Part shown: piece after piece, positions 7,415-24,821 of the stretch
Layout of the letters: each line of letters opens with the position of its first letter
How positions within the stretch are numbered: position 1 is the first letter of the stretch
Origin: Algibacter amylolyticus
GTDB taxonomy: Bacteria; Bacteroidota; Bacteroidia; Flavobacteriales; Flavobacteriaceae
Assembly (NCBI RefSeq): GCF_014202225.1
Contig: NZ_JACHGE010000004.1
Coordinates: 248,001-312,000, forward strand
Length of the DNA stretch: 64,000 nucleotides
Direction: 5' to 3'
Translations under genes and position numbers: made by a program
The notes under the pieces: model-generated
The model's input: the letters and a program-made list of their open reading frames with translations, nothing else
Told to the model about the DNA's origin: nothing
The model's database searches: none

Positions 7415-9097
7415 TTACAAATCCGTTACACAGCCCTTTGAAGCCGATGCTACCGTTTTTGCGTATTTGTATAATATTCCTTTATTGTGTTTTAATGCTG
7501 GTTGTATCCATTGCGCTTTTCTTTCTGCTATTTCTTCATCAGATAGTAAAACGTTAATAGAGTTATCTTCTGCACTAATTCTAATTTTATCTCCTGTTTT
7601 TAATAATCCAATAGTTCCACCATTCTGTGCTTCTGGCGTAATATGCCCCACAACAAAACCATGTGTACCACCAGAAAAACGGCCATCTGTAATTAATGCT
7701 ACAGATTTCCCCAAACCAGCTCCCATAATTAATGAGGTTGGTTTTAACATTTCTGGCATTCCTGGACCTCCTTTTGGACCTACGTATCTAATGACGACAA
7801 CATCACCTCTTTCTACTTCACCATTAGAGATTCCAGTATTTGCAGCTTGCTCACCATCGTAAACCACAGCTTTACCTTCAAATAATAAACCTTCGTTACC
7901 TGATATTTTTGCTACCGCACCTTCAGTCGCTAAGTTTCCATAAAGGATTTGTAAGTTACCTGAAGATTTTAATGCTTTATCCTTTGGAAAGATAACATCT
8001 TGATCGTCTTCAAAAGAAAGTGGTTCAACATCCGCTAAATTTTCAGCTAAAGTTTTTCCTGTTACTGTTAAACACTCACCATGTAAATAACCATTATCTA
8101 ATAAATACTTCATTACTGCTGGCGTTCCACCAACACCATGAACATCTTCCATAAGGTATTTACCAGATGGTTTTAAATCTGCTATTAACGGTGTTCTGTC
8201 GCTTACACGCTGAAAATCTTCTAATGTAAAATCGATATCTGCCGCATGTGCAATAGCTAAAAAGTGTAATACCGCATTTGTAGAACCTCCTAAAGCATTC
8301 ACTAATGCAATTGCATTTTCAATAGATTTTTTAGAGATAATATCTAATGGTTTTAAATCTAATTCTAAAAGGTTTTTAATAGCTCTTGCTGTTCTTTCGC
8401 TTTCAGATAATTTATTAGGATTTTCGGCTGGAATAGACGAGTTATATGGTAATGCAAACCCCATACATTCAATTGCCGAAGCCATTGTGTTTGCTGTATA
8501 CATACCACCACAAGCTCCTGCTCCTGGAATAGCACTCTTTATAATTTCTCTATATTCTTCTTCACCAATTTCGCCAGCTACTTTCTGCCCTAAAGCCTCG
8601 AAAGCCGAAACGATGTTTAATTTTCTTCCTTTATATTTACCAGAGGCAATTGTACCTCCATACATCATAATAGACGGACGGTTTAAACGTAACATAGCCA
8701 TTACAGCTCCTGGCATATTTTTATCGCATCCAACTACAGATACTAAAGCATCATAACTTTGAGCGTTCATTACTGTTTCAATAGAATCTGCAATAATATC
8801 GCGAGATGCTAAAGAGTAATTCATACCCGAAGTTCCCATAGAAATACCATCACTTACACCAATAGTGTTGAATCCTAATCCAACTAAACCTGCAATTTTA
8901 GTTTCAATTTTAACCTCGGCAGCTAAATTATTTAAATGCATGTTACATGGGTTCCCATCATATCCGGTACTCGCAATACCCACTTGAGCCTTATTCATGT
9001 CCTCATCAGTTAAACCTACTGCGTATAACATGGCTTGAGATGCTGGTTGAGATTCGTCCTGTGTTAGTCTTTTACTATGTTTATTAAGTTCTTTCAT
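7415..9097 (-). CDS. ilvD: Dihydroxy-acid dehydratase
   Basis: Dehydrates dihydroxy acids to 2-oxo acids in valine and isoleucine synthesis, using an Fe-S cluster and Mg2+. Typical motifs are [19 protein letters not shown] and [14 protein letters not shown] (the cluster cysteines) and [15 protein letters not shown] near the C-terminus. A TTG at 9112 is possible, but the ATG at 9097 ([11 protein letters not shown]) matches the family start and gives 560 residues. It is the first structural gene of the operon. A 5' leader of more than 240 nt separates it from the attenuator terminator at 9344-9369. Confidence 0.95.
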
Positions 9098-9343
9098 ATT
9101 TATTGCAAACAACTTTAGTCTTTAGCTTATTTTATTTTTGTATTCTTAGTTAATTAAGGTTTTTATTGAAAACTCTTCAATTTCACCAAAACAACTTGTC
9201 GAAATTAATTTATTAGCTTCTTATAGCCGCTAACCTTTGTTTTTCCAGGTTAAATCCACGACTATAAAAATCAATTCAAACACCTTATTATCAGTAACTT
9301 AGATTCATATTTTTATGATGTTCAAAACCAAAAAAAACTTCAT

Positions 9344-9369
9344 AAAAAAACCTTCCGAATTTAGGAAGG
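9344..9369 (-). terminator. Attenuator terminator of the ilv operon
   Basis: Minus-strand hairpin CCTTCC-TAAATTC-GGAAGG (9369-9351) followed directly by seven T (9350-9344). It lies 41 nt after the stop of the leader peptide and upstream of ilvD, with no other gene for it to terminate. The sequence GGAAAGG at 9404-9398, just after the leader stop, can pair with CCTTCC and form the competing antiterminator. Confidence 0.8.
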
Positions 9370-9410
9370 ATATTATATTTAAGTTTGATTTAAAATACCT
9401 TTCCGTTGCC

Positions 9411-9476
9411 TTATGAAATAATCACAAGGACATAAATAGGATCGATATTTAAAAAATGGTTTTTCATCGGCTTCAT
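9411..9476 (-). CDS. ilvL: Branched-chain amino acid leader peptide (attenuation)
   Basis: An ATG at 9476 opens 21 codons (a second in-frame ATG at 9467 would give 18). The peptide starts MKPMKNHFLN and ends IDPIYVLVIIS: seven of its last eleven residues are Ile, Val or Leu, the end products of the operon. It is followed within 41 nt by an intrinsic terminator. Stalling on these codons should leave GGAAAGG (9404-9398) free to pair with the terminator's first arm and allow read-through; normal completion should cover it and allow termination. No standard -7 box at an ideal distance was found, so the transcript start is not fixed. The peptide has no function beyond sensing charged tRNA. Confidence 0.75.
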   Translation of the reverse strand: MKPMKNHFLNIDPIYVLVIIS

Positions 9477-9557
9477 GCAAATATTTGTATTTAAACTTTA
9501 ACAGCCAACTTATTGCCAAAAAAAACAAAAACAGACACGCATATTCTTTTATTTTTT

Positions 9558-9565: not shown

Positions 9566-9578
9566 CGGAAATAATAAT

Positions 9579-9684
9579 AGAGGAAAGATTTGACTGATTG
9601 CAACCTCTTTACATTACAATTTAAGGTAATGTGAACAAAAATGCTAAAGGCAGTGTAAACTTCCTTCGACGTTCTCGTCAAATC
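9579..9684 (+). promoter_or_regulatory. SAM-II-type riboswitch controlling metK
   Basis: The core of the SAM-II aptamer is visible. P1 is AGAGG (9579-9583) with CCTCT (9604-9608). Loop 1 is GATTTGACTGATTGCA, matching the conserved GATTT...ATTGCA. The 3' segment AAAAATGCTAAAGG (9637-9650) carries the conserved AAATG...GCTAAA, and a second pairing is CTG (9594-9596) with CAG (9651-9653). An extra hairpin, ACATTAC/GTAATGT (9611-9632), is inserted where the short form has a few bases. GATTTGAC (9587-9594) is also perfectly complementary to GTCAAATC (9677-9684), 20 bases before the ATG, and could be the switching partner. SAM-II elements are known from alphaproteobacteria and Bacteroidota methionine genes. 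Confidence 0.78.
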
Positions 9685-24630: not shown

Positions 24631-24722
24631 GGCGTTACCCGAAAAGGGTCGTGCTTTCCACTATATCTTTTTTTTGCCATTTATGGCAGCAAAAAAAAGG
24701 ATGACGTTTCAATCACTAACGC
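24631..24722 (-). repeat. 92-bp interspersed element with GCGTTA/TAACGC ends, copy 2
   Basis: On the minus strand it starts GCGTTAGTGATTGAAACG and ends ACCCTTTTCGGGTAACGCC, as copy 1 at 21283-21371 does on plus. Its centre is different: poly-T and poly-A tracts with TGCCAT/ATGGCA that can form a hairpin. Confidence 0.7.
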
Positions 24723-24821
24723 AACCTAGAAGTTATATTTTTTAATATATTTCAAAAAATACAAATTTTCATATTACATGCGTTCTTATTGCAGGGAATC
24801 CTGCCAAAATTATTAAAAGCA

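What the first reader, a model, noticed from the sequence alone, without database searches (positions are those of the whole stretch)
9344..9476. Branched-chain amino acid attenuator with a 21-codon leader peptide ahead of ilvDBNC
The minus strand contains a tiny ORF whose tail IDPIYVLVIIS is rich in exactly the amino acids made by the downstream operon. Its stop is followed by GGAAAGG (9404-9398), then CCTTCC-loop-GGAAGG and seven T. GGAAAGG can pair with CCTTCC (one bulged A), giving the mutually exclusive structures of classic attenuation, with the switch arm starting 6 bases after the leader stop. Attenuation itself is well known in proteobacteria; I do not know of this leader being annotated in this group.
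Basis: partly seen in the sequence, partly recalled or inferred. Interest (0 to 1): 0.8.

Follow-up and report, generated by a model that had tools for sequence, protein, structure and literature searches.

The report
Amino-acid-sensing switch before branched-chain operon
A tiny 18-codon gene rich in isoleucine, valine and leucine codons, followed by mutually exclusive RNA hairpins, most likely lets this flavobacterium stop transcribing its branched-chain amino acid genes when those amino acids are plentiful; the mechanism is the textbook one, but the same kind of switch is re-used across the family, including a version reading asparagine.

Summary
The leader most likely starts at the second ATG (9467; 18 codons, MKNHFLNIDPIYVLVIIS), because the promoter box TTGG-N19-AATATTTG puts the predicted transcription start at about 9473; the leader RNA would be almost leaderless. 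Relatives show the same frame (consensus MKKQILNIISIIVIVIISQ), a protector stem, an internal hairpin, an antiterminator and a terminator; pairs hold in 84% of cells against 47-56% for slid controls. A covariance model finds it upstream of ilvD (or of the gene before it) in many Flavobacteriaceae; several loci carry two in tandem. Leader-peptide attenuation upstream of amino acid operons has already been reported for a Flavobacterium, so this is a new member of a known kind. New context: (i) a rigidly spaced, more conserved element and a second promoter (predicted start about 9195) lie between terminator and ilvD, so the attenuator is not the only control; (ii) the same model led to an asparagine-coded attenuator (MTNNNNNNNFNNPNL) upstream of gatA and a GatB-AspRS fusion in the same genome. 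No experiment was possible.

The parts
9505..9508 (-). P1 -33 element TTGG, 19 nt before the -7 box
   Evidence: sequence; the same spacing TTGG-N19-AAnATTTG is seen in relatives read; consensus -7 box TAnnTTTG at -12 to -5 from PMC9723704
9478..9485 (-). P1 -7 element AATATTTG; predicted transcription start about 9473
   Evidence: sequence, box position relative to start from PMC9723704; inference, no start-site data
   Evidence: start and frame aligned with 32 relatives
9439..9450 (-). region 1 (protector 5' side), inside the leader: AAATATC and TCC pairing with 9399-9393 and 9404-9402
   Evidence: folds; pair counts
9409..9429 (-). internal hairpin CCTTGTGA-TTATT-TCATAAGG spanning the last Val/Ile codons and the stop
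   Evidence: fold; helix 3, 87.9% of cells paired, compensatory changes
9393..9404 (-). region 2 (switch arm) GGAAAGGTATTT
9364..9374 (-). region 3 AATATCCTTCC (antiterminator 3' side; CCTTCC is also the terminator 5' arm)
9344..9369 (-). intrinsic terminator CCTTCC-TAAATTC-GGAAGG followed by T7
   Evidence: (-7.4 kcal/mol)
9314..9325 (-). conserved box 1 TTGAACATCATA of the downstream element
9251..9258 (-). conserved box 2 TGGATTTA, 67 nt after box 1
   Evidence: spacing 67 (45 of 48) or 68 (3 of 48)
9200..9207 (-). P2 -7 element TAATTTCG, 118 nt after box 1; predicted start about 9195
   Evidence: 118 or 119 in 44 of 48 boxes counted; TATCTTTG / TATATTTG at the same place in more distant relatives
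7415..9097 (-). ilvD, dihydroxy-acid dehydratase, first structural gene (conserved ATG at 9097; one search lists an upstream TTG at 9112)
   Evidence: TIGR00110, 724 bits
5622..7388 (-). ilvB, acetolactate synthase large subunit (GTG 7388; ATG 7352 possible)
   Evidence: TIGR00118, 713 bits
4966..5499 (-). ilvN, acetolactate synthase small subunit
   Evidence: TIGR00119, 95 bits
3473..4948 (-). ilvC, ketol-acid reductoisomerase
   Evidence: NF003557, 925 bits
2049..3314 (-). ilvA, threonine ammonia-lyase, fifth gene in the same direction
   Evidence: NF006390, 622 bits

Best explanation
Classical ribosome-mediated transcription attenuation that reads charged Ile-, Val- and Leu-tRNA. RNA polymerase starts at P1 (about 9473) and a ribosome loads on an almost leaderless 18-codon frame. 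If the leader is not translated, region 1 pairs with region 2 and the terminator 3:4 forms. If branched-chain aminoacyl-tRNAs are scarce, the ribosome stalls on the Ile/Val/Leu codons near the end of the leader, covers region 1, leaves region 2 free, and 2:3 (GGAA-A-GGTATT with AATATCCTTCC) keeps the terminator from forming, so ilvDBNCA is transcribed. If they are plentiful, the ribosome reaches the stop at 9413, covers much of region 2, and transcription ends near 9344. A second promoter, P2, with a rigidly spaced upstream element gives leader-independent expression. Shown: the sequence parts, their conservation and the alternative pairings. Inferred: promoter use, translation of the leader, ribosome positions and the regulatory response.
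For: Leader and terminator upstream of ilvD in 57 of 118 upstream regions examined by script (two of these 57, L047 and L106, look spurious). In 33 aligned leaders about half of all codons are Ile, Val or Leu; the 19 leaders of 20 codons keep Ile/Val/Leu at positions 9 and 11-17 with few exceptions, while synonymous changes exceed random expectation (30% against 24%). Protector, internal hairpin and terminator together: 83.8% of cells paired against 46.6-55.7% with partners slid; 31 cells changed on both sides against 15.7 +/- 3.3 in shuffles, 0 of 500 as high. Antiterminator: 82.5% paired (44-74% slid); across loci whose terminators have different cores, 15 of 17 minority-class regions 2 pair better with their own region 3 than with those of other classes (mean -8.4 against -5.0 kcal/mol). 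For the window itself: duplex -7.8 against -3.7 kcal/mol shuffled, p 0.035; covariance score 104.7 bits (the window is one of the 33 sequences in the model). In 149 family genomes the 43 best model hits (E up to 1.2e-7) all lie within 1.3 kb upstream of ilvD on its strand.
Against: No transcript, start-site or termination data. In this genus the attenuator erodes: one of ten genomes has lost it (L085), one has a weak terminator (L083), one a shifted leader end (L084); further relatives lost it while keeping the downstream element. The window's terminator is on the weak side (-7.4 kcal/mol) and its leader carries Asp, Pro and Tyr where relatives have Ile, Ser and Ile. Covariation counts on related sequences, part of which are also coding, are not independent events. 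The antiterminator helix alone is no better than column shuffles on the family alignment. In full-length minimum-energy folds the terminator wins over the antiterminator whatever part of the leader is blocked; the switch depends on the order of folding during transcription. P2 would weaken control by the attenuator.
Confidence: 0.9

Rival explanations
1. The attenuator is a vestige in this lineage: the leader and terminator are decaying and the operon is run from P2 by a transcription factor that binds the rigid TTGAACATCATA / TGRNTTTA element.
For: P2 and its boxes are kept in relatives that lost the attenuator (L010, L099, L106, L114, L115, L116, and L085 with a changed box 2); the window leader differs from the family consensus and its terminator is weak.
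Against: The window still scores 104.7 bits, in the upper part of the family range; its internal hairpin and protector carry changes that keep pairing; promoter box, frame, stop, switch arm and T run are all intact.
Confidence: 0.12
2. The hairpin is an unregulated terminator, for example ending stray transcription from upstream, and the ORF is incidental.
For: The hairpin with T7 would work as an intrinsic terminator on its own.
Against: metK is transcribed away from it; the ORF and the antiterminator are conserved together with it; terminators with other cores come with matching switch arms.
Confidence: 0.03
3. A different sensor (T-box, riboswitch or protein-binding attenuator) controls the terminator and the ORF is not read.
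For: None found.
Against: No Rfam family at gathering score in the leader and only chance-level hits in the permissive search; the conserved part outside the leader frame is no larger than the switch itself.
Confidence: 0.02

Closest known systems
ilvGMEDA / ilvBN / leu leader-peptide attenuators of enterobacteria (textbook; own knowledge)
   Same: Leader peptide rich in Ile, Val and Leu codons, 1:2 protector, 2:3 antiterminator, 3:4 terminator, same pathway
   Different: No sequence relation found: no Rfam leader family reaches its gathering score; the leader here is predicted to start about 6 nt after the transcription start, too close for a Shine-Dalgarno site; the switch arm begins at or just after the leader stop
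Leader-peptide attenuators noted upstream of amino acid operons in Flavobacterium psychrophilum (PMC9723704)
   Same: Same family of bacteria, same proposed mechanism, found from structured transcribed 5' regions
   Different: The main text gives neither operons nor sequences ('ilv' does not occur in it); the supplement could not be read here
Attenuators predicted in 'Bacteroidetes/Chlorobi' by comparative genomics (Vitreschak et al. 2004, recalled from memory; paper not held)
   Same: Branched-chain and other amino acid operons, leader peptides
   Different: Not checked which genomes or operons were covered
Corynebacterium glutamicum ilvBNC attenuator (PMC11857589, abstract listed)
   Same: Three-hairpin attenuator of a branched-chain operon
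   Different: Other phylum; not compared in detail

Membership tests
Ribosome-mediated (leader peptide) transcription attenuator | Short ORF rich in codons for the pathway's amino acid | tested here: met
Ribosome-mediated (leader peptide) transcription attenuator | Intrinsic terminator between the ORF and the structural genes | tested here: met
Ribosome-mediated (leader peptide) transcription attenuator | Antiterminator that excludes the terminator, with its 5' arm within the footprint of a ribosome at the stop | tested here: met
   support is strongest from loci with different cores
Ribosome-mediated (leader peptide) transcription attenuator | Protector (1:2) structure formed with the leader coding region | tested here: met
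Ribosome-mediated (leader peptide) transcription attenuator | Structural genes make the sensed amino acids | tested here: met
   ilvD-B-N-C-A
Ribosome-mediated (leader peptide) transcription attenuator | Transcription starts upstream of the ORF | tested here: inconclusive
   Promoter-like TTGG-N19-AATATTTG conserved; no start-site data; a second promoter is predicted downstream
Ribosome-mediated (leader peptide) transcription attenuator | The leader is translated and read-through rises when the charged tRNA is scarce | not testable with these tools
   Needs a reporter assay, ribosome profiling or term-seq
Rfam leader families (proteobacterial leader peptides) | Covariance score above the gathering threshold | tested here: not met
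   (Phe_leader 18.2 bits against 55)
T-box | Match to the T-box covariance model | tested here: not met
   No T-box hit in the Rfam scans

The most novel reading that the evidence does not exclude
The ilvD switch is one of a set of similarly built, near-leaderless attenuators in Flavobacteriaceae and their relatives, recoded for different amino acids: Ile/Val (before ilvD, ilvE or ilvA), Thr (thrA) and, in the window's own genome and about 19 related genomes, asparagine. The Asn leader (MTNNNNNNNFNNPNL) controls gatA plus a fused GatB-AspRS, which in a genome without AsnA or AsnB would be the only route to asparagine. An Asn-reading attenuator of a fused tRNA-dependent asparagine pathway would be a new regulatory circuit.
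Probability: 0.7. Interest if true: 0.65.

Novelty: new member of a known kind. Interest (0 to 1): 0.42.

Why it matters
It gives a precise, testable attenuator in a phylum whose ribosomes do not rely on Shine-Dalgarno pairing, and so bears on whether transcription and translation are coupled there: leader attenuation works only if the first ribosome follows RNA polymerase closely. The nearly leaderless leader suggests how that is achieved. The covariance model can annotate these switches across Flavobacteriaceae, and it led to an asparagine-coded switch on a tRNA-dependent asparagine pathway, for which I found no description.

Tried and rejected
RNAalifold on the family alignment finds only the terminator, probably because the alternative structures compete; the other helices were tested by naming them. 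I first took the downstream element (TTGAACATCATA...) for an RNA structure; RNAalifold gives none, and its spacing is rigid (67 and 118-119 nt), so a DNA element before a promoter is the better reading. The search for that element in 40 related genomes found it at most once per genome, and in nine of the ten genomes with a match at the ilvD upstream region itself, in the tenth about 1 kb upstream of ilvD, so no wider regulon could be defined. A weak hit of the Asn model in G106 (L196) has no leader and was discarded. Family-wide model hits weaker than about E 1e-5 were interpreted only where the sequence was read. Searches for papers on leader-peptide attenuation in Bacteroidetes and flavobacteria gave one report on a Flavobacterium; two aimed at asparagine leaders gave none. 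Vitreschak 2004 is not held.

Full report
What is there. On the minus strand, between the divergent metK and ilvD, lie a promoter-like TTGG-N19-AATATTTG (9508-9478), a short ORF (9476 or 9467 to 9411), GGAAAGG (9404-9398) and CCTTCC-TAAATTC-GGAAGG followed by seven T (9369-9344). The downstream genes are ilvD, ilvB, ilvN, ilvC and ilvA. The finding's coordinates are right. One change: with the -7 box at -12 to -5, as measured in a Flavobacterium (PMC9723704), transcription would start at about 9473, which is downstream of the first ATG; the second ATG, 9467, aligns with the leader start of 32 relatives. The leader is then MKNHFLNIDPIYVLVIIS, with a 5' untranslated stretch of about 6 nt. In relatives the ATG also lies about 8-13 nt after the box (read).

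Chance. None of 4000 random sequences of the same composition contained an equally Ile/Leu/Val-rich leader with a terminator at the right distance, and only one other place in the window passes the same filter.

Conservation. A script found an Ile/Leu/Val-rich leader followed by a terminator in 57 of 118 upstream regions (window included), two of which look spurious. The typical leader is MKKQILNIISIIVIVIISQG or -QR. Named genomes with it include Algibacter, Flaviramulus, Lutibacter, Meridianimaribacter, Winogradskyella, Gaetbulibacter, Dokdonia, Aquimarina, Flavobacterium and Saprospiraceae. Leaders keep their frame; Ile, Val and Leu replace one another; synonymous changes are above random expectation.

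Structure. Free folding of the leader RNA gives a protector stem between leader codons and the bases after the stop, capped by a small hairpin over the last Val/Ile codons, plus the terminator. On 33 aligned relatives this structure is kept in 83.8% of cells; sliding the partners drops it to 46.6-55.7%; 31 cells have changes on both sides against 15.7 in shuffles. The antiterminator GGAA(n)GG with CCTTCC is kept in 82.5%. Its best support comes from loci whose terminators have other cores (CTGTATC, CTCCC, CCATTC, CCGTTC and others): 15 of 17 switch arms match their own terminator better than those of other classes. For the window, with the leader up to 9411 blocked and the RNA ending at 9361, the antiterminator is the predicted structure; once the 3' arm is made the terminator is always the lower-energy fold, so the switch must act during transcription.

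How it works. Classical attenuation: stalling at the Ile/Val/Leu codons frees region 2 for region 3; a ribosome at the stop covers much of region 2; no translation leaves 1:2 and 3:4. These last steps are inference from the anatomy.

Distribution. A covariance model built from the 33 leaders gave the window 104.7 bits. In 149 Flavobacteriaceae genomes, 94 had a hit at E 0.01; the 43 best hits are all within 1.3 kb upstream of ilvD, same strand (comparison). Where the distance is about 1.2 kb another gene comes first; in L122 (and in L160, L165 and L167) it reads as a branched-chain aminotransferase, ilvE (by eye). Across 198 genomes of the phylum the model finds 12, so this exact form is mostly of this family. 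Several loci carry two complete attenuators in tandem: L008, L012, L020, L022, L029, L035, L043 and perhaps L040; in L008, L012 and L035 the second unit has a different core (CTGTATC).

Turnover and a second promoter. Some relatives lost the attenuator (L010, L085, L099, L106, L114-L116) or are losing it (L002, L083, L084). What stays is a block downstream of the terminator: TTGAACATCATA, then TGRNTTTA 67 nt later (45 of 48; 68 in 3), then a -7 promoter box at 118-119 nt (44 of 48 counted boxes). In the window these are 9325-9314, 9258-9251 and 9207-9200, with a start at about 9195. Rigid spacing with little conservation between the boxes suggests protein-DNA contacts rather than RNA. The element occurs at most once per genome in 40 related genomes. 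So the operon probably has two promoters, one attenuated and one not. Flavobacterium loci have the attenuator about 40 nt from ilvD, and no such element was found there.

Beyond the window. The same model hit a second place in the window's genome, G000:C5:252088-252202. There the leader is MTNNNNNNNFNNPNL, the stop is followed by GGAAGGTTATTGTT, and the terminator is AAGCCTTCC...GGAAGGCTTTTTTT. Folding gives the same alternatives; here the Asn codons themselves form region 1. Downstream are gatA (best family TIGR00132, 429 bits, below its cut-off of 481) and a 1118-residue fusion of GatB (397 bits, over cut-off) and aspartyl-tRNA synthetase (715 bits, over cut-off). The genome also has separate synthetases that read as AspRS, AsnRS and LysRS (by eye), no AsnA and no AsnB over cut-off. 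A model of this leader finds 21 of 149 family genomes, of which one is a false hit. If functional, it makes the amidotransferase respond to scarcity of Asn-tRNA. Thr leaders before thrA (L150, L169) and an Ile leader before ilvA (L149) were also met (genes by eye). I found no paper describing an Asn leader.

Verdict. Leader-peptide attenuation has been reported for a Flavobacterium (PMC9723704), which lowers novelty. The tandem copies, the second promoter and the Asn version raise interest beyond the single locus.

Noticed in passing
G000:C5:252088-252202 (L156:2089-2203 +), and L132-L148, L195: Asparagine-coded leader MTNNNNNNNFNNPNL with the same attenuator anatomy, directly upstream of gatA and, in the window's genome, a gatB-aspS fusion; about 20 of 149 Flavobacteriaceae genomes have the leader.
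   Followed up: partly
L156:3918-7274 +: A 1118-residue fusion of GatB and aspartyl-tRNA synthetase following gatA; the genome has no AsnA, no AsnB over cut-off, and a separate AsnRS-like gene.
   Followed up: partly
window 9200-9325, minus strand: Rigidly spaced conserved boxes and a -7 promoter box between the attenuator and ilvD, kept even where the attenuator is lost; regulator unknown.
   Followed up: partly
L008, L012, L020, L022, L029, L035, L043 (L040 doubtful): Two complete leader-terminator units in tandem before ilvD or ilvE, the second in some with a different switch core.
   Followed up: partly
L149, L150, L169, L168: Related switches with an Ile leader before ilvA, Thr or Thr/Ile leaders before thrA, and a Cys/Met leader (MKNQKTNITCMCMMKTALSGEG) before a gene that looks like cysH (gene identities by eye).
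   Followed up: no
window 9574-9657, plus strand: SAM-II riboswitch before metK, divergent from the ilv operon; known family.
   Followed up: no
window 24643-24731, minus strand: Flavo-1 RNA, an Rfam motif of unknown function.
   Followed up: no
L106 (G152), upstream of ilvD: A tRNA-like gene with its own terminator sits where relatives have the attenuator; the downstream box element is kept (tRNA by eye).
   Followed up: no
L020, L038, L050: ilvD contigs labelled Ignavibacteriae, Planktophila and Thalassovita are 66-69% identical to the window's protein; probably mis-binned Bacteroidota contigs (inference).
   Followed up: no
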